Of a DNA stretch of 35,591 bases, positions 1,949 to 17,987 are shown in pieces. A model generated the notes under the pieces. That model did not search any database, was not told the DNA's origin, and saw only the letters and a list, made by a program, of their open reading frames with translations. Position 1 is the first letter of the stretch, and the number at the start of each line of letters is the position of its first letter. A program made the position numbers and the translations under genes. Origin of the DNA: Mesomycoplasma hyorhinis ATCC 17981 (GTDB taxonomy: Bacteria > Bacillota_I > Bacilli_A > Mycoplasmatales > Metamycoplasmataceae); contig NZ_KB911494.1 of NCBI RefSeq assembly GCF_000383515.1, positions 1 through 35,591 of the forward strand. Reading direction: 5' to 3'.

Positions 1949-1991
1949 TTTTGTTTTCCTTTCTCTTGAAAAAAGAGTATTTAAATTATAT

Positions 1992-2030
1992 AAAAAAAAG
2001 CAAAACTCAAAAATTAATATGAGTTTTGCT
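1992..2030 (-). terminator. rho-independent terminator shape upstream of proS
   Basis: AGCAAAACTC (1999-2008) and GAGTTTTGCT (2021-2030) form a perfect 10-bp stem with a 12-base loop. On the minus strand it is followed by eight Ts. There is no intact minus-strand gene upstream until the tRNAs at 3112, which have their own terminator. It either ends a lost gene or lies in the proS leader: TATAAT-like boxes occur on the minus strand between about 2055 and 2085. The shape is certain, the role is not. Confidence 0.6.
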
Positions 2031-2211
2031 TTATAAATTTTTTAATTAAATATAAATTATTATATGAATAATTATTATAAGCTTATATAAATGGGTAAAA
2101 GTTTAAACTAATTTTTGTCTCAATTGAGATTTGTTTTATTTGTTTAGCAATATATATTAATGAATTAATTTAATAAAGTAAGAAAGAAGGAATGAACTTA
2201 CATAAAAGTGA

Positions 2212-2243
2212 TGGTTTTATCAATACGAATAAACCATATTTTT
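2212..2243 (+). terminator. weak terminator-like hairpin in decayed region
   Basis: TGGTTT (2212-2217) pairs with AAACCA (2231-2236) and is followed by TATTTTT. It overlaps a tiny reading frame with an AGAAGGA ribosome site (ATG at 2192, 17 codons, MNLHKSDGF...), which looks like the stub of a lost gene. Low confidence. Confidence 0.25.
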
Positions 2244-2309
2244 AATATAACATAATGAAAAGCATCAAAAACTATAATTTAAACATCTATTATAATGATC
2301 TTTATTAAT

Positions 2310-2348
2310 GTTATTCTTTTTTGAAAAGGCCTTTTCAAAAAGAATAAC
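2310..2348. repeat. 39-nt near-perfect palindrome without loop
   Basis: GTTATTCTTTTTTGAAAAGG is followed directly by CCTTTTCAAAAAGAATAAC. The arms are complementary over 19 bases with a single extra T in the left arm, and the centre is GGCC. It lies 72 bp before the start of a decayed reading frame. It could be a cruciform, an operator for a dimeric protein, a recombination site, or a terminator with no tail. Confidence 0.6.
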
Positions 2349-2419
2349 TGATGTATATTAAAAAAGAAAGAAAATTTGTTTATTAATTAAAAGTGATTCT
2401 AATTAAAGGAGAATAAAAA

Positions 2420-2992
2420 ATGATTGAAATTTTTTCTCTAAATTCTATAACTTTGAAGACTTAAAATCAAGAGATGGAAAATTTACTATTAAAAATATAA
2501 GGGATATAAAAGTGATAAACTAAGAAAATGACTAATTCTTGATACCAAGAATTTAAATTGTTATATAAAATGAGTTGTTTACAAAATAACAAAACAATAA
2601 TATTATGAACCAGATGAAAATTTTAAAGAGCTATTGTTTGCTATTTTACTAAATGTTTATTTTTAAAAATATAAATTAAAAAAGTCACAAGTTTTATTAT
2701 AAATTACCTAAAATGGATAGCAACCATTCAAACACAATTTAATTAAAACCCAATAATATGAGTTTTTAAAAGAATTTTAAGCAACTAAATGACTACTTAG
2801 ATTGATCAGATCTTTGATAGTTGTTAAACAATATTTGAAACCAATAATACAAAATACAATGAACAGATAACATTAATAAAAATAATTTAAGAGTGGGCAT
2901 TAATATAACTAGTTTTATTAAGATTTTATATACAAAAAACAATCCAATGCACAATTATGTAAGATATGGTTGCCTTTGGGGATTTTTTTAGA
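2420..2992 (+). pseudogene. decayed gene(s) of unknown function
   Basis: A good ribosome site (AAAGGAG, 2405-2411) precedes ATG 2420. The frame MIEIF... then breaks in a T-run near 2431-2436 and continues in another frame as FSKFYNFEDLKSRDGKF. It shifts again near 2500-2510 to SDKLRKWLILDTKN...YKITKQ, meets TAA at 2598-2600, and runs on as YYEPDENFKELLFAIL to 2666. A third stretch (about 2782-2992) reads QLNDYLDWSDLW, two stops, then NLRVGINITSFIKILY and HNYVRYGCLWGFF. The Trp, Tyr and charged residues look protein-like and not random. I do not recognise the family, and it may be two genes. The closeness to tRNA genes and the palindrome at 2310 suggest the remains of an inserted element. Confidence 0.5.
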
Positions 2993-3001
2993 ATGCATTT
3001 T

Positions 3002-3044
3002 AAAAACAAATTTAATCAAACTAATTTGATAAATATTTGTTTTT
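3002..3044. repeat. long AT-rich hairpin next to the tRNA terminator
   Basis: AAAAACAAAT (3002-3011) pairs with ATTTGTTTTT (3035-3044), and inside it ATCAAA (3015-3020) pairs with TTTGAT (3025-3030). It lies directly beyond the tRNA terminator and may act as a second stop for either strand. Confidence 0.4.
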
Positions 3045-3096
3045 AAAAAAAAAATCAGTCAACTCTTAAAAAATGACTTTTAATAAAAGTTAACTG
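3045..3096 (-). terminator. terminator of the tRNA-Tyr/tRNA-Gln transcript
   Basis: On the minus strand CAGTTAACT (3088-3096) pairs with AGTTGACTG (3056-3064), nine pairs including one G-T. A smaller ACTTTT/AAAAGT hairpin lies within the loop, and a run of ten Ts (plus-strand As, 3045-3054) follows almost at once. It begins 15 nt after the tRNA-Gln 3' end. Confidence 0.7.
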
Positions 3097-3111
3097 TAGT
3101 GAATTTTCATA

Positions 3112-3186
3112 TGGCTGCCCCAGTTAGATTCGAACTAACGAATGACGGTACCAAAAACCGTTGCCTTACCGCTTGGCTATGGGGCA
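3112..3186 (-). tRNA. tRNA-Gln (UUG)
   Basis: The minus-strand cloverleaf starts TGCCCCATAGCCAAGCGG and ends GGGGCAGCCA with the CCA encoded. The acceptor stem is TGCCCCA/TGGGGCA, the discriminator base is G, the T arm is GTTAG-TTCGAAT-CTAAC, and the anticodon loop contains TTTTGGT with anticodon TTG. It lies 3 nt after tRNA-Tyr and is surely cotranscribed with it. Confidence 0.95.
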
Positions 3187-3189
3187 ATA

Positions 3190-3273
3190 TGGTGGGGGGT
3201 GAGGGATTCGAACCCCCGAATCCGAAGAAAGTGGGTTACAGCCACCCGCATTTGGCCGCTCTGCAAACCCCCC
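3190..3273 (-). tRNA. tRNA-Tyr (GUA)
   Basis: This 84-nt class II tRNA has a long variable arm. Its acceptor stem is GGGGGGT/ACCCCCC, the anticodon in CTGTAAC is GTA, the T loop is GGGGG-TTCGAAT-CCC-type, and ACCA is encoded at the 3' end. It is first in the two-tRNA transcript; an extended -10 promoter lies 44 nt upstream. Confidence 0.95.
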
Positions 3274-3316
3274 CGGTAATTGCATAAATATCTCTTATTA
3301 GTCTAATGCAATGAAT

Positions 3317-3322
3317 ATTATA
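3317..3322 (-). promoter_or_regulatory. promoter -10 box for the tRNA pair
   Basis: The minus strand reads TGTGCTATAAT, an exact TATAAT preceded by TGN (extended -10). The expected transcription start is near 3310, about 37 nt before tRNA-Tyr. No clear -35 is present. Confidence 0.6.
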
Positions 3323-3604
3323 GCACAAAAATAAATTTTATAAAAGTTTTTTTAAAACTGAACTGTCTTCACTTATAAAATAAGTAGCTATATAGCAGAG
3401 CTTTGTCAATTAACTATATAATAAATATATAAAAATATTTTTATAATTATAAAATAAAAATTATTTGAGCTTCTTTACATAATTAAAAAAGGTTTTTGTC
3501 AATGAGGAATAATAAATTCAAAAAACTGTTTTTTTGTTTTTAATATTGAATTTTTCTCTATTTTTTATTCGTTATTATTCTATATTTAAATTAACAATAA
3601 AAAT
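3323..3604. other. AT-rich intergenic stretch, no gene seen
   Basis: It contains stop codons in all frames, poly-T and poly-A runs, and a loose inverted repeat (about 3508-3555, AAATTCAAAAAAC... GTTTTT...GAATTT). I see no tRNA, known RNA or protein-like reading frame. Confidence 0.5.
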
Positions 3605-3633
3605 AAAAATGCAGTTTTTCAACTGCTTTTTTT
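3605..3633 (-). terminator. terminator of ptsI
   Basis: On the minus strand GCAGTT-GAAA-AACTGC (3611-3626) lies 10 nt after the ptsI stop. It is flanked by A-run and T-run (ATTTTTATTTTT), giving a compact rho-independent terminator. Confidence 0.75.
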
Positions 3634-3635
3634 AT

Positions 3636-5351
3636 TTATCTTTTAGGATGAATTTTTAAAATTTTTTCAACCTCTGATTGTCTATCAGCTAATTTAACTT
3701 GTTCTCAAAGATCTTTATATTTTTCATAACTTGTATTAGAAATAAGTTTTTTTACTTTCAAAATACTACTTGCTGACATAGAAAATTCATCAAGCCCCAT
3801 ACCTAATAAGATAGGAACTGCATAAATATCTCCAGCCATTTCTCCACACATTCCTACTCATTTATTATGTTTATGAGCTCCATCAATTGTTAATTTAATT
3901 AGCTTTAAAATTGAAGGATTTAGAGGCTGATAAAGGTGTGTTACTTTTTCATTCATTCTATCTGCTGCCATAGAATATTGAATTAAATCATTTGTTCCAA
4001 TTGAAAAAAAATCAACATATTTTGCTAATTGATCAGCAATCATTGCTGCAGCTGGAATTTCAATCATAATTCCTACTTTAATATCATCTTTAACATTAAC
4101 AAATTCTTGTTTTACTTCTAAAAATGTTTTATCAAAAATTGCTTTTGCTTGTAAAAATTCATCTACTGTAGCAATCATTGGAAACATAATTGCTAAATTC
4201 CCAAATTCAGAGGCCCTAATTAAAGCTCTTAATTGAGTTACAAAAACATCTATTCTATCCAAAGAAAGACGAATTGCACGATATCCTAAAAATGGATTTA
4301 ATTCTTTTGCAAAATTAAAATACTTTAGAGTCTTATCGCCACCTATATCCAATGTTCTAACAACAACTTTTTTGTTATTCATTCTTTCTAAAACTGTTTT
4401 ATAAACTTGAAATTGTTCTTCTTCAGTTGGTCAGTTATTGGCATCCATGTATAGAAATTCACTTCTAAATAAACCAATTTCATCTGCATTTGTGTGTAAA
4501 ACTGCTTCTAAATCTTCAACATTTCCTATATTAGCAGCAATAACTACTTTTTTACCATCTTTTGAAACTGATTCTTTATTTTTATAAGTTTCTAATTCGT
4601 GCTTTAGTTTTATATATTCTTGATATTGCTTTTCATATTCTTGAATTGTGTTGTCTGATGGATTAATTACACCAATTCCAGTGTCTCCGTTAATTACTAC
4701 AGTATCACCATTTTCAACTTTTTGAGTAATATCTTTTAGAGCTAAAATTGCAGGAATTTCCAAACTTCGAGCCATAATAGCTGAATGTGAAGTTCTTGAT
4801 CCTATGTTAGTTAAAAATCCTTTAACATATGAATTTAATTGAGCTGTATCTGAAGGAGTTAAGTCATTAGCTACAATAATTATATCTTCAGAAATTAAAC
4901 TCAAATCTAACAAATCAATATTTAATAAATTTTTAATAATACGAGTAGTTAAGTCTTTAATATCTAAAGCTCTACCTCTCATATATTCATCATCCATACT
5001 CAAAAACATTTCAATATACTTTTTAGCTACTAAATCTGTTGCGTGAACCGCATTTTCTTTTTGATTAATTAATTCAATAATTTCTTCATTAATCATTGGA
5101 TCATTAGCTATTAAAATGTGCGCATCTAAAATATCTAATTCTTCTTGTTTTAATTTATTTTTTGCTTTTTCTTTAATTGTTTCAATTTGTTGAATAGATT
5201 TTTCCAAGGCTTTTTTATATAAAGCAATTTCTTTTTCTGTATCTTCAATTTTGGAATGATCAATCTTAATATCTACTTCTTCTATTTTAAAAACTTTAGC
5301 TTTGACTACACCTGAAGAAGCTCCAATTCCTTTAAATTCTAAATTTTTCAT
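3636..5351 (-). CDS. ptsI: PTS enzyme I (phosphoenolpyruvate-protein phosphotransferase)
   Basis: This 571-aa cytoplasmic protein takes phosphate from PEP and passes it to HPr, the first step of sugar uptake by the phosphotransferase system. The N-terminal HPr-binding domain (about 1-150) leads into [20 protein letters not shown], where H189 is the phosphorylated histidine, at the same position as in well-studied EI proteins. The PEP-binding barrel shows [22 protein letters not shown], and [17 protein letters not shown] followed by a GMCGEMAGD segment near the end. Length is typical. TGA(Trp) codons occur after N436 region and before [10 protein letters not shown]. The start is supported by an AGAG ribosome site and a TATAAT 43 nt upstream. 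It appears monocistronic, with its own terminator. HPr (ptsH) is not in the window. Confidence 0.95.
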
Positions 5352-5393
5352 AATTTTTCTCTTTTCAAATTTTATATCTTGTAATTATAAAAG

Positions 5394-5399
5394 AATAAA
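5394..5399 (-). promoter_or_regulatory. probable -10 box for ptsI
   Basis: TATAAT on the minus strand, in the context TTTTATAATTAC, 43 nt before the ptsI ATG and giving a leader of roughly 35 nt. No strong -35. Confidence 0.45.
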
Positions 5400-6110
5400 A
5401 ATAAATAAAAGTGAAAATAAAAAAATTCTAGAAAAAAAATAAAAAATTATCTTTTAAAAGTTTTAAATATTTTGGTTTTTAAAAAGCACAAAAATCATTT
5501 AACTAATTTTAATTTCTTGTTGATTTATACACAAAATCTTCAAAAAAAATTGTAAAAATAATTAACAAGGATAATTTTTTTATAAATTAAATTCAAAAAA
5601 CTAATTTAAATACAATTTTTAAAACTACAAAAGTTTATTTTGCTTCATTTTTCTTCATTTTTTTACAAAATAATAAATAATTTAAGTATCAATTACTATT
5701 TTAAAATTTTATTAAATTGTTGTTGTATGCATAATTTTTACAGCTTTATTTTAAAATTAATATAAATATGATTTTTAACTAATATTTAGTAATTAGTTAA
5801 AATTCGATTTTAAAGTATAGTTTCTTCTGTAAAAATTCAAATTTATTCTATTAACTTACCAATATAAATCTCTAAATGTAAAGAAAATGAAGGTTAAAAT
5901 TGTATAAAATTCTTCATTTATTTTAAAATTACTTCTCAAACTTTTTTTATTACAATATATATATATATATATAGAAGGATAAATTTTTTTAATTATTTTG
6001 ATTTTGAATATAATTTTGATTCAACTAAATTTTTTTAATATCAAATATAACTTAAATTTTCAAAGTTAAACTAGCTAAAAACACTAAATCAATTTATTTT
6101 TTTAAATAAT
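5400..6110. other. long AT-rich gap without recognisable genes
   Basis: About 700 bases lie between the divergent ptsI and rplU. All frames are full of stops, and I see no tRNA or structured RNA. The one distinct element is an alternating AT run at 5955-5973 (19 nt). In a genome this compact the size is unusual: it may be a decayed gene or a region affecting DNA melting. Confidence 0.5.
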
Positions 6111-6114
6111 GATA

Positions 6115-6120
6115 TATAAT
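6115..6120 (+). promoter_or_regulatory. promoter -10 box for rplU-rpmA
   Basis: TATAAT in GATATATAAT, giving an expected start near 6127 and an 80-nt leader before the rplU ATG. The -35 region is only T-rich. Confidence 0.5.
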
Positions 6121-6126
6121 TTTGCT

Positions 6127-6206
6127 GTTACTTATTAAGTAACCATTCTAAAAAGGTATTCAAGCATAGCACCTCAAAGATGAGCCATTTTAATAAGGAG
6201 TACACC
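6127..6206 (+). promoter_or_regulatory. rplU 5' leader with hairpins, possible L21-type leader
   Basis: GTTACTT-ATT-AAGTAAC (6127-6143) forms a perfect 7-bp hairpin at the likely start of the transcript. Next comes AGGT...ACCT around 6155-6174, then the AAGGAG ribosome site at 6195-6200. Ribosomal L21 operons of Firmicutes often carry an autoregulatory leader. Whether this is that family needs a covariance-model search; the hairpin is direct observation. Confidence 0.35.
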
Positions 6207-6506
6207 ATGTTCGCAATTATTAAAACTGGTGGAAAACAACTTATTGTTAAAAAAGACCAAACTGTCTTTGTAGAAAAATTACAAGGAAAAGAAGGAGATA
6301 CAGTTCGTTTCTCCGAGGTTGTTTTAATTAACAATAAAATTGGAAGTCCATTAGTTAAAAACGCATATGTTGAAGGCGTAATTGAAAAACAAGGTAAAAG
6401 CAAAAAAATTGTTGTTTACCGTCACAATGCAAAATCAACTCATAAAAGAAAATTAGGACACCGTCAACCTTATACACGTGTAAAAATAACAGAATTGAAA
6501 GGATAG
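6207..6506 (+). CDS. rplU: 50S ribosomal protein L21
   Basis: This 99-aa protein starts MFAIIKTGGKQLIVKKDQ, the standard L21 opening, and ends with the L21 signature KRKLGHRQPYTRVKITEL. It binds 23S rRNA in the large subunit. ATG 6207 is chosen over an in-frame ATG at 6180 because AAGGAG lies 6 nt upstream of 6207 and the family starts there. It is followed after 9 nt by rpmA, without the prp (ysxB) gene that sits between them in most Firmicutes. Confidence 0.97.
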   Translation: MFAIIKTGGKQLIVKKDQTVFVEKLQGKEGDTVRFSEVVLINNKIGSPLVKNAYVEGVIEKQGKSKKIVVYRHNAKSTHKRKLGHRQPYTRVKITELKG

Positions 6507-6515
6507 TAAACTGAT

Positions 6516-6773
6516 ATGGCAAAGACCAAAGCAGGTGGTTCGACAAAAAACGGACGCGATTCCGCAGGAAGACGTCTTGGACAAAAACTTAGTGATGGAC
6601 AATTCGCTACAGCAGGAGCAATTATCTTTCGTCAAAGAGGAACCAAAATTTTTCCTGGTTTCAATGTTGGAAGAGGTAATGACGACTCCCTATATTCTTT
6701 AATTGAAGGTTTTGTAAAATATGAAACTAGAAAAAAAAGAAAATACGCTTCAGTGTATAGCGAAAAAAAATAA
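6516..6773 (+). CDS. rpmA: 50S ribosomal protein L27, without N-terminal extension
   Basis: This 85-aa L27 lies near the peptidyl-transferase centre. It starts [20 protein letters not shown], which corresponds to the mature N-terminus of L27. Firmicutes usually make a precursor with about nine extra residues removed by the protease Prp. Here the start codon gives the mature form directly, and no prp gene is adjacent. Conserved features further on are [17 protein letters not shown] and [21 protein letters not shown] lies 13 nt upstream, inside the end of rplU. A strong terminator follows. Confidence 0.97.
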
Positions 6774-6783
6774 ATCCTCCAAT

Positions 6784-6821
6784 AAAAAAGTAGCTCAAGC
6801 TACTTTTTTTTTTTTTTTTTT
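6784..6821 (+). terminator. terminator of rplU-rpmA with 18-T tract
   Basis: AAAAAAGTAGC (6784-6794), loop TCAA, GCTAC (6799-6803), then 18 consecutive Ts. It is a textbook rho-independent terminator 10 nt past the rpmA stop. The reverse complement could also serve the opposing membrane-protein gene, whose stop is at 6866. Confidence 0.85.
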
Positions 6822-6865
6822 GTTTGTTTTGTTTTTTGTATCTATTTTAAATAATAAAGATTAAT

Positions 6866-7894
6866 TTATAAAGTATATTCTACTTTGTACTTACTAAATC
6901 TTTTTGCTTTAAATGTTTTAGTTGAAAAAACCTGTGCATATGAATAATTAATAGTTAAAGCAAAGTAAAAAAAGTAAGAAATATAAAGACTAAATGTAGA
7001 TAAATATAAAAACGAAGCCATAGAACCATATTTTTCATATTTAATATATTTATTAGATACTAGATATCCAAAAATAATTGTAAAAAAAGCTGAAGAAAGT
7101 GAAGCAATTATCCAACCAGGGACAATATCTTTAAATTTTAGTTGGAAAACTGGTAGTCATTTAAACATTAACAATCAACCAGATGTAAAGAAAAATATCA
7201 AGTAAAATGAAGAAATTATATAAAAAAGCACATCATAAACAGATTCCGAATTAATTAATGCTTGTTTTAAATACATCATAATTGGAGTTATTATTATTAA
7301 AGAAAAACTAACAAAAATAACAATTGCTATTACAATAAAAAGTGCTTTTAATTTACCATAAATTCAACTTCCTTTGTTTTTATGGTTGTAAATAGTTGAT
7401 TGTGAAGCCATTAATTTTGAATAACCATTTATACTAATTCACAATGTTGAAATTGCTAAAAACAAAATACCAATATTGGATCAATTAGTATCTTTGAAAG
7501 TGACTAAAAAATCAGGCAAAGCTGTTTTGATTCCTGGAATAAATCTATTTAAAATTTCTGATTTAACAAAATTATTGAACGGTTCTGAACCATTAACTGT
7601 AAATGTAATATTTGTTAAAATCATCATTATCATAATAATTATTGGAATAAATGAAATCAAAATATAAAAAGCTTGTCCAGTTGCAATCAAAATCGAATTT
7701 GCTGATAAATTAGTTACAGAACCAGAAATTAATTCTTTATATTGTGAACTTCTTGTTTTTCAATCTGTACGTTTAAAAACACCCAAAGTAATTAATAAAA
7801 TAAAGTAAACAAAAAAATACATAAATTTATCAAAGAATTTGTATTTTTTCTTTTTTACAAGTATGGATTTAATATATTTATTTTCTTTCCCCAT
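6866..7894 (-). CDS. YihY/BrkB-family polytopic membrane protein
   Basis: The 342-aa reading frame runs from ATG 7894 through several TGA(Trp) codons. After a basic N-terminus (GKENKYIKSILVKKKKYKF) come about six hydrophobic helices. The stretch SILIATGQAFYILISFIPII near residue 70 has the aromatic and Pro pattern of the YihY/BrkB family (once misnamed RNase BN). Other family-like parts are SNIGILFLAISTLWISINGY, a long hydrophobic span around VIAIVIFVSFSLIIITPIM, and GWIIASLSSAFFTIIFGYLV. The function of the family is not settled; transport has been suggested. The C-terminus is basic (KAKRFSKYKVEYTL). There is no strong ribosome site. It is divergent from dprA. Confidence 0.75.
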
Positions 7895-7998
7895 AATGAA
7901 TATTTATATATTTTAGGAAAAAAAGCCAATTTTTTATAAAAATTTTTTCTTTTATCACTTTTTGCTAATTTTTAGACATTATAAGTGAAAGGAAAAAA

Positions 7999-8763
7999 AT
8001 GAAATCTATCTTAATTTATTTTGCCAAAAAATACAAAGGCGACTTTTATAAAATACTAAAAGCACTAAAAGAAAACGAAAGGGTAGACGATACAGATGCA
8101 CAAGCTGTAATGGATGAATTAAAGCGAAAAAACATCAAAGCTTTTACTGTGCTGGATTCTGTTTATCCAGAAGTTTTTAAACATTTAAAAACTCCACCTT
8201 TTGTAATTTTTTACAAAGGAAACATCAATTTATTACAAAGTGAACTACCTAAAATTAGTTTAGTTGGTGAACAATATAATGACATTATTCAATCTTATTT
8301 AGACAAATCTTTATCAGAAGTCATTAAACGACACGTTGTTGTCACAAATGGTTACAAAGGAGTAGAAGAAAAAATTAACAATTATTTTCTTGAAAATCAA
8401 GGAAAATTGATTTTTGTATCTGCTAATGGTGTAGAAAATCCTTGAATTTCTTCACGTATTGATCAAGATAATGAAAATATTTTGATTCTTTCTGAATATC
8501 CAAATACATATGTTTCTTACAATAGATTAAAAAACAGAAACAGACTAGTTGCTGCTTTATCTAAAAATCTAATTGTTTATTCTTCTTCAAAAACAAGCGG
8601 AATCCAAAATTTAGTTAATCATTTTTTAATGATAGGTAAAGAAATATTTTGTTTTCCAGGAGATACTAATTTTGAAAATGATGGCAATGTTGAACTTATT
8701 AAACAAGGCGCTAATTTAATCACAGAAGTAAAAGATGTATACAAGGAGGTTAATTTTGAATAA
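7999..8763 (+). CDS. dprA: divergent DprA/Smf-like DNA-processing protein
   Basis: The 254-aa product belongs to the DprA/Smf family, whose members bind incoming single-stranded DNA and load RecA in transformable bacteria. The N-terminal part has YPEVFKHLKTPPFVIFYKGN (55-74), matching the usual Y-P...PP-x-LY-x-KG. The C-terminal half has SEYP (165-168), KNRNRLVAALSKN (178-190), SSKTSGIQN, IFCFPGD, and VELIKQGANLI. The normally invariant G-S-R is GEQ here (90-92), and the S-G-x-A-x-G-I-D segment is TNGYKGVEE (116-124). These substitutions are unusual and could weaken nucleic-acid binding. GAAAGGA lies before ATG 7999. Its last 8 nt overlap the next gene, whose ribosome site lies inside dprA, so it is translationally coupled to the secretion-like genes downstream. 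Confidence 0.85.
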
Positions 8764-9070
8764 TTTTTTAAATATTGTTTTATTTGAAGATAATTCAACA
8801 GATATTTTAAACAGTGTAGCGACAAAAGCTAGTTCAATTGGTTATGTTATTTTATCTTCATTTAGTGGACTCGTTGCACTAATTTTAATGTTTGCACTAA
8901 TTTATACAGGAATTAAAATTGCTTATTCACATGGACAAAAAAGAAAACAGTACATAATTCATATAATGATAGTTTTTGTGGTGTTTATTATAACTATTAT
9001 TTTATTTTCAATAGGTATAAAATATGCAGTAGATATTTCAACTAAAGCTGCAATAAACTTAACAAATTAA
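8756..9070 (+). CDS. small two-helix membrane protein, VirB2/TrbC-pilin-like
   Basis: The start is TTG at 8756: a perfect AAGGAGG (8743-8749) lies 6 nt upstream, whereas the in-frame ATG at 8735 has none. The 104-aa protein has a polar N-terminus (1-27), membrane helix 1 at about 28-50 ending IYTGIKIA, a short basic loop SHGQKRKQ (58-65), helix 2 at about 67-88, and a polar tail. Helix, G-I-K, basic turn, helix is the layout of VirB2/TrbC-type pilins and the small 2-TM subunits of Gram-positive type IV secretion systems. The family call is inferred from topology and from the VirB6- and VirB4-like genes that follow, since sequence similarity is too weak to see by eye. It overlaps dprA by 8 nt and the next gene by 1 nt (TAATG). 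Confidence 0.6.
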   Translation: MNNFLNIVLFEDNSTDILNSVATKASSIGYVILSSFSGLVALILMFALIYTGIKIAYSHGQKRKQYIIHIMIVFVVFIITIILFSIGIKYAVDISTKAAINLTN

Positions 9071-10308
9071 TGTTTGAAAAGACTTTATTTTTCCCACTTT
9101 TTGTTTTTATATGAACTATTTTTATTCAAATACCATTTTCGCTATTAAGTTTAGTTTCTAAACTTTTTGAAGTTGTTAATTTTTCATTTATTAACTTTAT
9201 GCTTTTTGGAATCGAAAAAATCGAAAATTTTGATTTTAATAAGTTAAACACTTCAATTTACTTTAAATTATTTGCAATTGTTAGTTTATTTTTGTTTATT
9301 TTTATTTTATTATTTGTCTTTGTAAAATGAAGCATTCATAAAGGAATACAAAATAAAAATTACAGTTTTTTAGCTAGGTTGAAACATATAATTTCTTATT
9401 TCGTACTTCTTTTACTAACACCTATAATAATTTTTTCTGCACTTTTAGTTTTGAATAATTTCTTTGAAATTATTCTACGAAGTTTTGATGTCAAAAGTAA
9501 TTTAGCAAATAATATTTTTATGAGTTTGATTCCTTATAGAATTCTTAGACCAGATTGACTTTTTCTTGCAAATCAAGAATATAGCGCACCTTCATTTGGA
9601 ATGTTTTTAGCTTTTCCTGGCTCATCAGCAGTTATTTTGTTCTTTCCAGCACTTATTGGAATGTGATCTTTTAAAATAATGGCTACATCTATTGTTCGGG
9701 TATCGATGCAAACATTTCAAATGTTGGTTTTGTTTTCAGTTAGCCCAATAATTTTTTCAACAATGATCTACGATAATGGACGTAAATTTAAGATTTGAAA
9801 AAATTTATTTATAAGAAATGTTTTAACAATTATGTGTTTTGTTCTTGGTATTAAACTTTTTGAATTTTATGTTTTAATAATCAACAAATGAAATCTAAGA
9901 CATTTTTACGGAATTTTTGACAAAAATATAATCACTAGCTTGTTTATCATAGGTGGTTTATTAGGAGCTACACAATTGAACAAATTAGTTTATAAATTTA
10001 CTAATCAAAATTACAAACTAAAAGAACACTTTGTACAAACACAAGATGTATTTAAAAATGCAAAAAATTTTATAACAAATAAAACCGAAAATATAGCTGA
10101 AAATCAACAAAATGTAAACAACGAACAAAAAAATAAATACAAACCACAACAAACTTTACCAGAGTTAAATTTAGACTTGTTTGCAAAATATAATAATCAA
10201 TTTAATGTTGAATGAAATATCGAAAATAAAGATTATAAAATTCCTAAACTTGATTTTCAAGATCATAAATTTTTCAAAATGTACAAGGAAATAAATGCTA
10301 CAACCTAA
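9070..10308 (+). CDS. polytopic membrane protein, VirB6/TrbL-like
   Basis: This 412-aa product has six or seven hydrophobic helices, roughly at residues 5-30, 62-86, 106-128, 170-198, 212-232, 246-266 and 288-304, and then a 100-residue polar, Asn/Gln/Lys-rich tail that should be cytoplasmic. After the helix LVLFSVSPIIFSTMI comes YDNGRKFKIWKNLFIRNVL. The pattern S-P ... D-(D/N)-G-x-x-F-K-x-W resembles the one I know from VirB6/TrbL-like channel subunits of Gram-positive conjugation systems. ATG 9070 overlaps the upstream stop in TAATG, so translation is coupled. The next gene starts inside its last codons. The VirB6 role is inference, supported by position between a pilin-like gene and a VirB4-like ATPase. 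Confidence 0.6.
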
Positions 10309-12958
10309 ATCTATCAAGAAAAATAAAATTCATATTTTTAAAAATTTTTATTTTTCAGATCTTATAGTTTGTTTTTTAATTTTTGTTATTTCAATCTCGC
10401 TTGGTTGATTCATTGTTCCAGCTTCTGTTCCTTATAGAGATTTAATTTCAATTGGAGTTATTATTGCTCTATTTGCTTTGCTTGCGATTTTGTTAATTTT
10501 TGTTCCTACTTGAAATATGCGAATTTGACAATTTTTAATTTATTTTTTAAAATATCTTTTAGAAAATAAAAAATATAAATTTAATAGTTCTTCTGCTAAC
10601 TCATCAAAAATAAATATCTACAAATCTATAGATAAAAACGGAATTATCAAGTTAAAAAAGAAGAATTTGTTGTTAAAAGTTATTGAATTTGATGGTAAAA
10701 ATATTTGAATTCAAAATCAAAATCAAAAACAAATTTTTTTGAATAGTTTTGTAAGTATTTTAAATATTTTAGATTTTAAAGTGAGTTTTGTCAAAACAAA
10801 GAAAAACTTTAATTATGAATCCAATATTGAATCACTAAACAATCAAATAGAAGACTTAATTAAGCATAAAGATGTAAAAAATGAAAATTATAATGTTTTT
10901 TACAACTATCTTTATAAGTCTTGAGAAGAAATTTCATCTATTAATGTGTTTGAAAGTTATGATCAATATTTCATAGTAATTTATGCAGAAAATGAAGAAA
11001 AACTACTTCAAAATGAAGAAATCATAGTAGATGAATTAAACAAATTGTTTATTACAACCAAATCACTAAATCAGCTTGAAACATTAAAATTTTTACAATC
11101 ATTTATAAGCAAAACACCCAAAGAAGAAATTAGTGAAAAAGAATTTGAAAATTTAGATTCTTTATTAAAAGTTAAAAAAGCACAATTCTTTTTTAACAAA
11201 TTTAAAATTGATGATGAATTTTACAAAATAAGCACTATTTCTGAATATTCACTAAATTTAAACATAGCTTGAGCTAACTCTTTTTTCAATTGCGATTCTT
11301 CATGAGTTATTTGACATTTAAATCCAATTGAAGAAAATGAATATGAAAAAATTTTAAACAAAGCCGATAATAATATCAAGACTTCTATGTCCTTTAACAA
11401 CACTTCAATTTATAGAACAAAGAAGGATTTACAACAAATAGAAGCACTAAATGAAACTATGCATTTAGTAAACACTGAAGGTCAAAAACTTTTTGATTCT
11501 TCTTTATTTTTCTTAACAAAAAACGAAAATTGAAGCCAACTTAAAAAAGAATTAGATGCTAAATTATACAAAGAAATCAAACTAGAAAAATGTAAACCAA
11601 ATCAACTACTTTTTAGACAAATGGATGCTTTTCAAAGTTTGCAATTCGGAGCTAATGAAAAACTAAATGAAAACGTGCAATTTGTATCAAGAAATATTTC
11701 CTATAGTTGGCCTTTTAGTTTTGAAAAAAACATTGATAAAAATTCATTTATTTTAGGTAAAAACAATCAAAAAGCAATTATTTTAGATATTTGAAAAAGA
11801 GATGAAAAACATACTAACTCTAATTGTGTCTTTTTTGGAACATCGGGCCAAGGAAAAACAAGTTCAATTAAAAAGCTCATTTTAGATAGTTATATCAAAC
11901 AAAATGCTTCTGTTTTAATTTTAGATCCACAAAGAGAATATACAAGTTTTTCTTCCTTTTTAAATACTTCATTAATAGATTTGTCTTCTAATAATATGTC
12001 TTTAAATCCTTTACAAATAAGTGCATCACTTGTAGATAATCATGAAAATAACAATTTATTTTTAATCAATTCTCAAATCCAAATGTTCTTGCAATGAATC
12101 AAAATTTTAAATGGTAGTTTAGATGAAGAAAAAGAACTAATTTTAACAATGGCCATTAAAAATATGTATCAAAATTTTGGATTTTATGATCCTGATATTA
12201 ATTTGTTAGAACTTACAAATAATCAATTTCCCCTAATTGATGATCTTATTTGAGAAATTAAAAATCTACAATTTAAAAACCAGCAAGAAGAAAATATATA
12301 CTTTGAATCTAAAATAAAAATCAAAAACTGATTTATTACTAACTTTACAAATGATGGACTTTATCAAAAAATGTTTAATAATCACACAACAATTGATTTT
12401 TTAAATAACTTTACAATTATTGATACAAAAACCTTTGTTGAAAATAACTCAATAGAATTTGTAAATGCTTCATTTTTCTTGATTATTTTCCTAATTCAAA
12501 ATAAAATTAACAAAAATTTTATTAACAATAAAAAATTTATTTTAGCAATTGATGAGCTACATAAATTCATTGATTCCAACAATTTAACAACACTTAATTT
12601 TATTTTTCAAACCACTAAAACAATAAGAAAATTTAATGGATCAATTGTTCTTTCAACCCAAAATATCAATGACTTTGCTTTATCAAAAGATTTAATTAAT
12701 AAAACGCAAGCCATTTTAAAAAATATGCAATATAAATTCTTTTTGCACCTACCAGGTGATGATATTAAAATGATAAATCAAATTTTTAATCCTCTTTACA
12801 ATTCAGAAAATGAAGAAACTAATTTATTAAACAAATTTGATAGCCAATTCGTTCTAAACGCAAAAAGAGGACAATTATTATTGCTTAGCTCTTTTAATGA
12901 AAAAAACTTTTTAAGAGTAAATTACAACGATTATGAAAAGGAGGTTATTTTAAATTAG
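10295..12958 (+). CDS. VirB3-VirB4-like fusion ATPase
   Basis: ATG 10295 has AAGGAAA 4-5 nt upstream and lies inside the end of the previous gene. The 887-aa product begins with two membrane helices (22-41 and 51-71), the place of VirB3 or a PrgI-like subunit. A poorly conserved VirB4 N-terminal domain follows, then the ATPase: Walker A GTSGQGKTSS starting at G515 with K521, then VLILDPQREYTSF, Walker B ILAIDELHKFI with D753-E754, and IVLSTQNINDFAL, the Q-containing motif of VirB4/TraE ATPases. The product should sit at the inner face of the membrane and energise assembly or transport. VirB3-VirB4 fusions are known in other type IV systems. No VirD4 coupling ATPase is nearby. It overlaps the next gene by 5 nt. 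Confidence 0.88.
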
Positions 12959-15900
12959 AAGTCTTTGAAAAATAAAATTTTGACTGTTTTTATTTATTAG
13001 TTTAATTTGTCCTGTACTTTTTTTAAGTGCAAATATTAAAATAATTGATAACAAATCATCTACAGAATACATTCCAAGTCTGCAAACAGATTTTGTGTAT
13101 AGACAAAGTCAAAGTTTTGTAAATACATTCAAATCATCTGAAATTGTAGGGGATTATAGATCGCAGTTAAATTTTAACATTCCAAATTCAGAATATTATC
13201 CGACTATCAAATATCGAAATAATACTAGTTGATGATCTAGAAAAACTGCAAATTATCCTTATGTTATTAAAGGACATACATGAAGACATTCAGGAGATGT
13301 AACAGAAATAGTTTCTGGATTATACGGAGCTAAAATTAACATAAATCATGGTTTAAAAAGATATTATGGAAATTACACTTTTACTTGAAATTTAAGAGAA
13401 TATTTTGGCTCTCATGATAAACCAAAAGGTCTAGAACTTGATGATGGTTCTTTTGCTGAACTCTATTTTTATACTGTAAATGTTGATGATGTTAATGATG
13501 CATTTAGAAATGTTGACATTAATTTTGCTCTTGTAAACCGAAATGATCAAACTCCTTCTAATACTATTTTTTCTGCAGATGGAAGTTATGGAATTTATTT
13601 AAAACGCTATATTTTTCGTTCTGCACAAAACTATATTAATCAAATCAATAGAGAAATTCAAGCTAAAAAACAAAAAATTAATACTTTTACTATTAAAAAT
13701 TTATATGTAGATATTCAATTTTATCTAGAAAATCCACCTTATAGACACAAAATAAATTGATTCCCAGATAATCAAAAAAATGAGTTAACTTATTTTAAAT
13801 TTATAACTAAATTTGATCTTGAATACACAGCAAAGAAAAACATCACAAAACATCAAGAAAATCTTGCACAAATAAAGAAAATTAAAGACTCTTTTAAGAA
13901 AACATTTAAAAATAATTACTTAGAAATCAGCACAGATACAGGTGAGATCAACGGAATTTCCAATCTAACTGTATCTTCAAGAGACAAATCAAATAAATAT
14001 TATTTTGAAAAAGCATTAAGTAATTGATGAAGTAATTTAAAACCAACTCTTAAAACTGATTTTGCCTTAAAATATGAACTTTCCTCTGTGCGTAAAAAAG
14101 ATGATTACTTTGATTTATTTGTTAGTTTTCAAGAACCTGATTTTAATCAAAATGTTTACAAATATGTAATAAAAAATGTAAATATTCGATACAAAAGCAC
14201 AGAATTTTTTAAATCTAAAAATTTACAAGAAAGAATCAAAATTGTTCCAGGAAAAACAATTGATAAAACTAATTTTTCTAATAAATTAGTTGATGATGTT
14301 CCAGTAAGAGAAGAAAATGATCGTCCAATTTCTCGAGAATATGGTGGAACTTGAATTTATGATTCAAATGTTAAAGTGATTTTTAACACAACATTAAAAG
14401 AAGATGAAATTTTGTATATAAATGAAGAAAAAGTTGATGTTATAAACCAAAAATTTGAATTTGATTTAAAACTAATTAACCTTGACAATCCTGCTGAAAT
14501 ATACAAAATTAAAGTTGTAAAATTTGATAAAGAAAATGCAAATTTTGAAAATAAAAAAATGATTGCACAATGAGAAATGATTATTAAAATTAAAAATAAT
14601 CAACCCAAAATGGAAATAAAATGGTTTGGTTGACAACCTGACTCCAATCCTCAACAACGTTCTAAAATCGAAGAATATTTAAAAAATGACAAAAGTGAAT
14701 TCATTTTTGATGAAATAGGTCAAAAGATGAAAAATCCTGATTATGATAAATTAATTGATCCAGCAACAGGAACAAAAAACGAACTTGTTTGAATTGATTT
14801 TTCAGCAAATTCACTTCCTAATGGAACACAATTTTTACAAGATCCTCAATCAGCAGAAGGTAATTTAATAAAAGATATTGATCTTTTTGATCTTGGAATT
14901 ATAGCTCAAGCTAGTGTTATTGAAAAAGGAGCTAATTTCAAATCTTTTTCTTCTAATTCTTTATTTAGAAGATTTAAAGTTAGAAATGATATAGATAATT
15001 TTGACTTTGATTATGATCCTTTAATTTTTCCTTTATCAAGAAGAGGTCATAACTTTAAAATAAGTCAAATTGAAGAAAATTACTTCTCAAGCGAAGGAAT
15101 TTGACTCTTTTCATATAAAAATCCTAGATCAATGAATTTATTTAAAATCATTTGAGTTGGAAAAAATAAAAACAACCAATTATTTTCAGAAATATTTCCA
15201 AATACTAAAATTTACAATTTTTGAGAATCTACACACGGACAACATTTAGCTGCATATCTAGGCGAAAAAGAAAATTACAATTTAGATCAGATTAAACAAC
15301 TTAGTTATGATCAAGTAATTTTAAAATGAAAAGATTATATTAATGATTTTATTTGAAATAATCAAGATAGAACAACTTATAAAAATAAACAAATATTTTC
15401 AATAAATACTGAAGAAGTAGCTAACACTATTAAACAAATCCAAAAGAAAAATCAAGCAAAAAGAAACATTTCCAATTCCAACACAAGCAGCAGCAATGCT
15501 AGTCAATCCAATAATGATCAACAAAATTCTGCAAATTCTAGTGTAAATAATTCAAATGACGCAAATTCGAATAATGTAGAACATAATGAATTTGCGAACA
15601 ATGAAATATTAAATACTGAAGATTCTACTTGAACTCAAGAAGAGAAGAAAAAGTTATTAAACAATATTATTATCAATAACAAAAATACAGATAATCAAGA
15701 AATAAAAATTATTGAAGATTTTGAAATACCTGGACTTTATGAAATTCAAATTTCTAATTCAAAAGAATTGAACGTAAATGATGGAAACTTTCAAAATGAA
15801 TTTATTACTTTAGACTCTCCTTTGGATTCAGAAGCAAAAGAAAATAAAGAAGAAATTATTCCTCATGTAGATATAAAAGCAATAAAAAACTTAGCTCAAA

Positions 15901-17165
15901 AAACAACTTTTCAAAAATTCGTCTACAATGACATAGAAAAATTTATTCTTTTTGAAAACAAAGATAAAACAAATTGAAATATAAAATATGATTCAAAATT
16001 CTTACTTTTTGTATTTAGCCTAAGACCTGAATTTAAAAATGGCTTTTACATTGAACCCAAAAATAAATTGATAAAAGTTGACTTACATTTTCAAGAAGAA
16101 ACAAAAGTTTCAAATCAAGATAGTAATAAAAACAACATTTTTGACAACTTTAACTTAACTCAATTAAATATTAATGGTTTATTTTCAAAAGATGAAATAC
16201 TTTCATTTTTAGAAAAAAATATTCAAGAACAAATTAACACTGATTTTGAACTAGATAAAGATTATTTCATCGAAAATAAAGAAATAAAACTCAATGAAAT
16301 CGAAGAAGTTCTTGTAAAAGACAAAAATTTTTTAAACAACTGAGTCTATTTAAAAGTAAAAGATGCTCAAAATGCATCCAATTTTAAAGTTATTAAAGCG
16401 GTAAATAAAGTTGAAAATCAATACTATCAAAATCAAGAATTAGATTTAAAAACTATCCAATTAAAAGATTTAATTATTGATTATGAACAAACAAAAGAAT
16501 ATCAATTTTTAACAATTATTAAAGATTCTTTAATCTCACAACTAATTGATTTTAAATTAGTTTTAGAAACAGATTTAAACTTTAAACATCTTGAAACTTC
16601 TCTTGAAATGTTAAAAACTTTTAAAAATGAATTTGTAAAATTTGTGCTTTACTCACAACAGTTAAATATTAAAAATGAGTTGATTTTTAAAGTAAAATTA
16701 ATTAATTTCAATGACAAAGCAAAACTAGATTTTGCAAAAATAATAATTGATGATTTATCAATTACACAAAATTCAGAAGATAAAATTATTGAAGAAATTA
16801 GAAAATGAGTTAGTTCAAAATTAAAATCTTTCAACTTAGAACTTGATAAAGATTATTATGTTTCTTCTTTAAAAGAAAAAGACTTTTTAGCTACATTATT
16901 AAAAGAAAAAGATGCTAAAAATGTACTAAATATCAAATTAGAAGCTAAACCAGACAGCAAAAAACTTAAAGGAGAAACACAGTTTTATGTCTTTAACAAA
17001 ATAACTAATTTATCTAATGTAGAACAAATTAAAATTAATAATCAAGATAATAAACAAAATAATCTTGTTTGAATCATACCTCTTTCTATAATAATTAGTC
17101 CAGTTGCTATCTTTGTGATTTTAAAACTATTTAGAAAATACTTGTCAGCCAAAAGATTTAAATAA
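12954..17165 (+). CDS. giant surface protein of the secretion-like operon, ATT start
   Basis: The open frame begins directly after an in-frame TAA (12951-12953), so the first possible codon is ATT at 12954, 9 nt after a perfect AAGGAGG (12938-12944). No ATG, GTG or TTG comes before the signal sequence. The 1403-aa protein has a signal-like helix (about residues 6-26, KIKFWLFLFISLICPVLFLS, then AN). A large extracellular part follows, with a Ser/Asn-rich linker at about 838-875 and four degenerate repeats of about 97 aa starting near 968, 1064, 1162 and 1259. It ends with one membrane helix (about 1369-1390, VWIIPLSIIISPVAIFVILK) and a basic tail. I do not recognise a family. Position and coupling suggest an extracellular part of the VirB-like machine, such as an adhesin or scaffold. 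Confidence 0.75.
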
Positions 17166-17180: not shown

Positions 17181-17987
17181 ATGAATAAAAACTATATTTT
17201 TTCAGATGTTGATGGAACAATTTATGGTCCTAAATTTGAATTTACAAAGCAAACACAAAATTTTTTCATAAACAAAAAATCTGAAATGAATTTTGAAATA
17301 ATAATTACAACTGGAAATCCATTTATGTCAAGAATTAAAAACTTGGCTGAACAATTACAAGTTAAATATATCATCTCTTCAAATGGCGCACTTTTTAATG
17401 ATTTAGTTAATGATAAAGAATATATACTTTCTTACTTTAACAAACAAAATCAACAAAATGTTTTAGATATTGCTAAAAAACATAATTTACAAGTAAATTT
17501 TTGAAATAATAAAGAGTATTTTTGCTTCAATTTCATAGAGAATAACTATTTTGTATTTAACTATGCTCTTTTGGATCATTCAGAAGTAAAATTTACTAAT
17601 AAAACACATGATAATATACTAAAAATGGAACTTTATGGTCATAGAAATGATTTAGCTAATGCATTTTTAGAATTACAAAAAAATGAAGAATTTATTATTT
17701 CCTTTTCTAAAGACACACACATAGAAATCACAACTAAACCAATTTCTAAAGGTTATACACTTGAATATGTTTGCAAAAACATTTTTCAAGAAAACATTGA
17801 AAATGTAATGGCAGTTGGAGATAGTGAAAACGATATTTCTATGTTAAGTTTAGTGGGTTATTCATATGCTATGGCAAATTCTAATAAATATGTTAAAATC
17901 TTTGCAAAATATCACACTAGTGCTTTTGATCAAGAAGGTGTTGTTATGGCAATAAAAGACTTTTTATATAGAAAATCACAAAAATAA
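17181..17987 (+). CDS. Cof-type HAD phosphatase
   Basis: The 268-aa protein is a HAD-superfamily hydrolase of the Cof (IIB) type. Motif I is FSDVDGTIY with nucleophile D9 and D11, motif II is IITTGN near residue 43, a Lys in PISKGYTLEYV serves as motif III, and motif IV is VGDSENDISML. A cap domain lies between motifs II and III. Such enzymes dephosphorylate sugar phosphates, nucleotides or flavin precursors; the substrate cannot be told from sequence. It starts 15 nt after the giant surface protein without a ribosome site and may be transcribed from its own promoter. One TGA(Trp) occurs near residue 108. Confidence 0.9.

What the first reader, a model, noticed from the sequence alone, without database searches (positions are those of the whole stretch)
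8756..17165. Reduced type IV secretion-like operon on a mycoplasma chromosome, without ICE genes
Seen directly: four overlapping plus-strand genes encode, in order, a 104-aa two-helix protein (8756-9070), a 412-aa polytopic protein (9070-10308), an 887-aa ATPase with two N-terminal membrane helices plus Walker A GTSGQGKTSS and Walker B AIDELHK (10295-12958), and a 1403-aa secreted, C-terminally anchored protein (12954-17165). Known: VirB4/TraE ATPases are the hallmark of type IV secretion, and small 2-helix and VirB6-type proteins are its other membrane parts. Inference: this is a minimal machine for a cell without a wall. No relaxase, VirD4, integrase, transglycosylase or attachment site is seen, so it is unlikely to be a standard conjugative element. 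DNA uptake, DNA export and protein export remain open.
Basis: partly seen in the sequence, partly recalled or inferred. Interest (0 to 1): 0.82.

Follow-up and report, generated by a model that had tools for sequence, protein, structure and literature searches.

The report
Mycoplasma conjugation machine wired to dprA
In a group of wall-less mycoplasmas, part of a bacterial mating machine has become a fixed gene cluster joined to dprA, a gene for handling incoming DNA, which suggests that these minimal cells use it to take up DNA from outside, as Helicobacter does.

Summary
The four ORFs are real. They match NCBIfam models for mycoplasma ICE channel proteins Mbov_0395 (pilin-like), 0396 (VirB6-like), 0397 (VirB4, 880 bits) and 0399. 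An AlphaFold model of the 412-aa protein best matches R388 VirB6.

Among 135 family genomes, dprA followed by this T4SS occurs in 15/15 genomes of the window's genus, 5/5 of a second genus, and one Mycoplasmopsis. In 14 of these 21 it is the only VirB4, and none of the 14 has a VirD4. Among carriers, VirD4 occurs only where separate ICE copies exist.

dprA follows the species tree, but the T4SS genes do not: dprA-linked copies form two clades (one-clade AU test for VirB4, p=1e-36). So T4SS genes came to lie beside dprA twice or were exchanged there. VirB4 and the pilin-like gene show dN/dS about 0.05. ComEA, ComEC and RecA are present; ComGA/VirB11-type ATPases are not.

Best reading: a domesticated ICE conjugation channel working as a DNA-uptake machine, analogous to Helicobacter ComB (about 0.62). 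Uptake itself is untested. I found no report of it in the open papers searched.

The parts
7999..8763 (+). dprA (254 aa), first gene of the operon
   Evidence: PF02481 100.6 bits over cut-off; TIGR00732 106.9 bits, below its 191-bit cut-off; PDB 3uqz 9e-20
8756..9070 (+). VirB2/pilin-like two-helix protein (104 aa; 111 aa from the ATG at 8735), Mbov_0395/CDS15 family
   Evidence: NF045849 52 bits over cut-off; the M. 'Moose RK' homologue hits PF18895 T4SS_pilin 7.5e-15; dN/dS 0.05
9070..10308 (+). VirB6-like polytopic membrane protein (412 aa), Mbov_0396/CDS16 family
   Evidence: NF045848 195 bits, NF045889 147 bits; AF2 model top PDB hits are R388 TrwI/VirB6, prob 1.00 but E 0.02
10295..12958 (+). 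VirB4 ATPase (887 aa) with an N-terminal two-helix stretch, perhaps a VirB3/PrgI-like fusion; Mbov_0397/CDS17 family
   Evidence: NF045975 880 bits full length; profile hits VirB4 structure 4ag5 1e-66; PrgI similarity weak, only in some homologues; dN/dS 0.05
12954..17165 (+). Large secreted, C-terminally anchored surface protein (1403 aa), Mbov_0399/CDS19 family; ATT start
   Evidence: NF045892 440 bits over cut-off; AGGAGG and ATT conserved in G017; fold not resolved
17181..17987 (+). HAD/Cof-type hydrolase directly downstream, same strand; also next to the operon in G017 and 4 of 5 genomes of genus g5; probably context, not a T4SS part
   Evidence: PF08282 150 bits; synteny

Best explanation
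A conjugation channel of mycoplasma-ICE type, lacking its coupling protein, has become a fixed chromosomal operon with dprA and most likely works as the DNA-uptake machine of natural transformation. Proposed mechanism: VirB4 at the membrane, with VirB6 as the platform, assembles and retracts a short pseudopilus of the VirB2-like protein. The large anchored surface protein serves as receptor or scaffold. DNA is drawn to the membrane and handed to ComEA. ComEC passes one strand into the cytosol. DprA, made from the same operon, coats that strand and loads RecA. Shown here: gene identities, operon order, conservation, lack of VirD4, swap of the module beside dprA, presence of ComEA, ComEC and RecA genes. 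Inferred: pilus formation, DNA binding, direction of transport, recombination.
For: dprA directly precedes the T4SS in 20 of 20 genomes of two genera (1.5-2.7 kb from dprA to VirB4), plus one Mycoplasmopsis at 5.4 kb. No VirD4 by two Pfam models in the 14 genomes where this is the only VirB4; among carriers VirD4 appears only in genomes with extra ICE copies. infB and dprA trees keep the genus together, whereas VirB4, VirB6 and surface-protein trees split it and place the module of most of the genus with ICE copies: the neighbour was exchanged or acquired twice, always beside dprA. Strong purifying selection on VirB4 and the pilin-like gene. ComEA, ComEC, RecA in the genome; no ComGA/VirB11-type ATPase. 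Precedent: H. pylori ComB lacks VirD4 and feeds ComEC (PMC12857230; PMC13395361). M. ovipneumoniae, which carries the locus, shows recent recombination in over 1000 genes (PMC11364169).
Against: ComEA, ComEC and DprA are also present in most family genomes without this T4SS, so they do not require it. No DNA-binding or receptor domain was found in the surface protein. ComEC here has only the central domain by Pfam. One genome, G006, has an interrupted ComEA reading frame but keeps the operon. No uptake, expression or mutant data. Recombination in M. ovipneumoniae could come from other routes.
Confidence: 0.62

Rival explanations
1. Protein-secretion or surface-organelle machine: the T4SS core displays or exports the large surface protein (adhesion, host contact), and dprA is only a neighbour.
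For: T4SSs without VirD4 can export proteins (Ptl) or display pili (Bartonella Trw) (PMC12857230). The surface protein is large, secreted and faster evolving (dN/dS 0.16).
Against: No secreted effector genes were recognised beside the operon (my reading). It does not explain why the T4SS follows dprA in 20/20 genomes although the module was exchanged.
Confidence: 0.17
2. DNA export or cell-to-cell chromosomal transfer: a domesticated conjugation channel that donates chromosomal DNA, like the ICE-dependent mycoplasma chromosomal transfer (MCT), with DprA acting in recipients.
For: The channel genes are homologues of ICE genes needed for conjugation in M. agalactiae (CDS15, 16, 17, 19; PMC6030558).
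Against: VirD4 (CDS5) is essential for ICE transfer in M. agalactiae and is absent from 14 genomes with only this T4SS.
Confidence: 0.15
3. Decaying remnant of an integrated ICE that happens to lie beside dprA.
For: All four genes have ICE homologues, and one clade nests among ICE copies.
Against: Intact ORFs, dN/dS 0.05-0.16, the same order in 20 genomes of two genera, no other ICE genes or terminal repeats recognised.
Confidence: 0.03

Closest known systems
Mycoplasma ICE (ICEA/ICEB, MICE) channel module CDS15-CDS16-CDS17-CDS19
   Same: Same four protein families in the same order (NF045849, NF045848/NF045889, NF045975, NF045892).
   Different: No VirD4 (CDS5) in the genome; no other ICE genes recognised in the window; fixed beside dprA in whole genera. 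Most ICE copies mapped also carry one or more extra genes of about 190 aa between VirB4 and the surface protein, missing here.
Helicobacter pylori ComB competence T4SS (from literature: PMC12857230, PMC13395361)
   Same: VirB4, VirB6 and VirB2-type parts, no VirD4, with ComEC present in the genome.
   Different: No outer-membrane core (VirB7-10) and no VirB11 found; single membrane without a wall; a very large surface protein instead; separate origin from ICE-type genes; DNA uptake not shown.
Chromosomal T4SS of Patescibacteria (PMC12102498)
   Same: Relaxase-less chromosomal T4SS in genome-reduced cells, in one class near competence/recombination genes (comF, recG, radA).
   Different: Different T4SS lineage and gene set, and not adjoining dprA as far as the passages read.

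Membership tests
Type IV secretion system (VirB4-class) | VirB4 ATPase rather than FtsK/HerA | tested here: met
   NF045975 880 bits full length; VirB4 structure 4ag5 1e-66; only short Pfam matches to DUF87 and TrwB
Type IV secretion system (VirB4-class) | VirB6-type polytopic protein | tested here: met
   NF045848/NF045889 over cut-off; AF2 model's top five PDB hits are R388 VirB6, prob 1.00, E 0.02-0.06, model pLDDT 67
Type IV secretion system (VirB4-class) | VirB2-type pilin | tested here: met
   NF045849 over cut-off; PF18895 weak in the window (0.025) but 7.5e-15 in a homologue
Mycoplasma ICE | VirD4/TraG coupling protein (CDS5) | tested here: not met
   PF12696 and PF02534 find none in G000
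Mycoplasma ICE | DDE transposase (CDS22) and variable insertion site | tested here: inconclusive
   No transposase recognised among the window's ORFs by reading, not searched genome-wide by profile; the site is constant in 20 genomes
ComB-like competence T4SS | T4SS without VirD4 in a genome with ComEC and DprA | tested here: met
ComB-like competence T4SS | VirB7-VirB10 outer-membrane core | tested here: not met
   None among the operon's four proteins; not expected without an outer membrane; so not filed as a ComB member, only as working like it
ComB-like competence T4SS | VirB11 ATPase (ComB11 in H. pylori) | tested here: not met
   PF00437: only Walker-type fragments of at most 28 bits in 135 genomes
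ComB-like competence T4SS | Mutants lose DNA uptake and transformation | not testable with these tools
   needs experiment

The most novel reading that the evidence does not exclude
Mesomycoplasma-type wall-less bacteria are naturally transformable by a minimal single-membrane T4SS (pilin, VirB6, VirB4, one giant surface protein) taken from ICEs and coupled to dprA, with the channel exchanged or recruited at least twice: a second, independent evolution of a conjugation machine into a competence machine.
Probability: 0.5. Interest if true: 0.9.

Novelty: new variant of a known kind. Interest (0 to 1): 0.78.

Why it matters
How mycoplasmas without ICEs exchange genes is unclear, and no DNA-uptake machine was reported for them in the open papers I searched. 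This locus gives a specific four-gene candidate in two whole genera, one of which includes livestock pathogens. If it takes up DNA, it would be a further, independent case of a conjugation T4SS turned into a competence machine, in a very small form, and it could help explain why recombination is widespread in species such as M. ovipneumoniae. It also offers a simple single-membrane model for VirB4/VirB6/VirB2 function.

Tried and rejected
FtsK or other AAA ATPase for the 887-aa protein: rejected. ICE or ICE remnant: rejected (VirD4 absent, conserved place, purifying selection). Terminal repeats around the operon: only AT-rich low-identity pairs. RNA elements: only two tRNAs. Structure of the surface protein: AF2 of residues 28-860 was poor (pLDDT 50, pTM 0.31) and its fold matches are not meaningful. 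Co-occurrence of ComEA/ComEC with the T4SS: no signal, because both are nearly universal in the family. Order-wide adjacency outside the family: none within 3 kb among the matches listed; dprA-like hits lie 7-10 kb from VirB4 in two genomes, not followed (the match list was cut). Literature searches for mycoplasma natural transformation with DprA or VirB4 found no report; subscription papers and preprints are not covered.

Full report
The finding describes four overlapping plus-strand genes between 8756 and 17165. All four are present at those coordinates under the mycoplasma code, including the Walker A (GTSGQGKTSS) and Walker B (AIDELHK) motifs. The 1403-aa gene has no ATG, GTG or TTG start before its signal-peptide-like stretch. 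An ATT at 12954, preceded by AGGAGG, is conserved in the nearest relative G017 and is the likely start.

The ORF at 7999-8763 is dprA (PF02481 over cut-off, TIGR00732 hit below its cut-off, PDB match to DprA 3uqz). Its 3' end overlaps the start of the pilin-like ORF, so the operon reads dprA, pilin-like, VirB6-like, VirB4, surface protein, and then a HAD hydrolase on the same strand. The gene upstream (yihY-like, my reading) is divergent, with about 100 bp in between.

Identity of the parts. NCBIfam places the four proteins in the families of the mycoplasma ICE proteins Mbov_0395, Mbov_0396, Mbov_0397 (VirB4) and Mbov_0399, all over cut-off, VirB4 with 880 bits over its full length. A 15-sequence VirB4 profile finds a solved VirB4 structure (4ag5, 1e-66) and TrwK. 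An AlphaFold model of the 412-aa protein (pLDDT 67) has R388 TrwI/VirB6 entries as its first seven PDB matches, the first five at probability 1.00, although E-values are only about 0.02-0.06 for those five. The pilin-like protein is weak against Pfam's T4SS_pilin in the window but clear in a homologue. The VirB4 N-terminus shows weak PrgI/VirB3-type similarity in some homologues only, so a VirB3-VirB4 fusion is possible but not shown. The fold of the surface protein is unresolved.

Distribution. The window is contig C10 of an 806,507-bp, 98.7% complete genome with a single VirB4. In the 135 genomes of its family, VirB4 is found in 64 and dprA in 124. Same-strand dprA 1.5-2.7 kb upstream of VirB4 holds in 15 of 15 genomes of the window's genus and 5 of 5 of a second genus, and at 5.4 kb in one Mycoplasmopsis-type genome, G077; none of the other VirB4 copies checked is linked (from the lists). 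ORF maps of 19 of the 21 linked loci confirm the order. The window's own species was not identified.

Not a conjugative element. VirD4 was searched with PF12696 in all 135 genomes and with PF02534 in the 21 carriers. Fourteen carriers have the dprA-linked VirB4 as their only one, and none has a VirD4; the weak PF12696 hits there lie inside VirB4 itself. Six carriers with additional, unlinked VirB4 copies have VirD4, mostly within about 10 kb of those copies. G020 has two extra VirB4 copies but no VirD4 hit. In M. agalactiae, VirD4 (CDS5) is required for ICE transfer, as are CDS15, 16, 17 and 19 (PMC6030558).

History. Trees of infB and dprA keep the window's genus together, with the window and G017 as sister to the rest. 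Trees of VirB4, VirB6 and the surface protein do not: the window and G017 group with the second genus, and the other members group with ICE copies. Holding all dprA-linked copies as one clade is rejected for VirB4 (p 1e-36), VirB6 (p 3e-4) and the surface protein (p 0.005; this one with long branches and a simpler model). The simplest account is that an early dprA-T4SS operon was overwritten by an ICE-derived module in one lineage; two separate insertions are also possible, and the direction of transfer between locus and ICE is not proven. Either way a T4SS came to lie beside dprA more than once or was kept there through replacement, which chance neighbourhood does not explain.

Function. VirB4 and the pilin-like gene have dN/dS about 0.05 against G017, lower than dnaE (0.12) and dprA (0.09), so the machine is maintained by selection. 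The genome has ComEA-like and ComEC-like genes side by side and RecA. No genome in the family has a credible ComGA/VirB11-type ATPase, so no type IV pilus motor or VirB11 motor was found. In two outgroup genera comEC, a holA-like gene, dprA and topA lie next to each other (partly my reading), which shows that dprA can sit in a competence context in this family. In H. pylori the ComB T4SS lacks VirD4, takes DNA in and hands it to ComEC (PMC12857230; PMC13395361). By analogy the best-supported function is DNA uptake for natural transformation. The steps from pilus to recombination are inference.

Limits. ComEA, ComEC and DprA are nearly universal in the family, also without this T4SS, so they do not discriminate. 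No functional data exist here. Protein export or chromosomal DNA transfer cannot be excluded. The literature searches covered open-access papers only; within them no report of this locus or of natural transformation by a mycoplasma T4SS was found. In the passages read, the 2025 T4SS review treats only the ICE-encoded machinery of mycoplasmas (PMC12857230).

Noticed in passing
window 12936-12956; same in L031: The surface-protein gene appears to start with ATT behind a strong AGGAGG, overlapping the VirB4 stop codon; conserved in G017.
   Followed up: partly
L037 (G077, Mycoplasmopsis-type) 1978-16465: A second dprA, a weakly SSB-like gene and a window-type T4SS lie together; the genome has another dprA elsewhere and no VirD4. 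It may be a mobile form of the dprA-T4SS module.
   Followed up: partly
L123 and L124: In two outgroup genera comEC, a holA-like gene, dprA and topA are adjacent.
   Followed up: no
L115, L116, L117 versus L031-L036, L041: ICE copies of the window's genus have a gene of about 190 aa between VirB4 and the surface protein; dprA-linked copies of both clades lack it.
   Followed up: no
G020: Two extra ICE-type VirB4 copies but no VirD4 hit by two Pfam models.
   Followed up: no
G006:C1:50723-51073: The ComEA-like frame contains two TAA stops although the dprA-T4SS operon is intact in that genome.
   Followed up: no
G235:C1 about 418-429 kb and G263:C1 about 1238-1251 kb: In the wider order, dprA-like sequences lie 7-10 kb from a VirB4 on the same strand, perhaps on mobile elements.
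   Followed up: no
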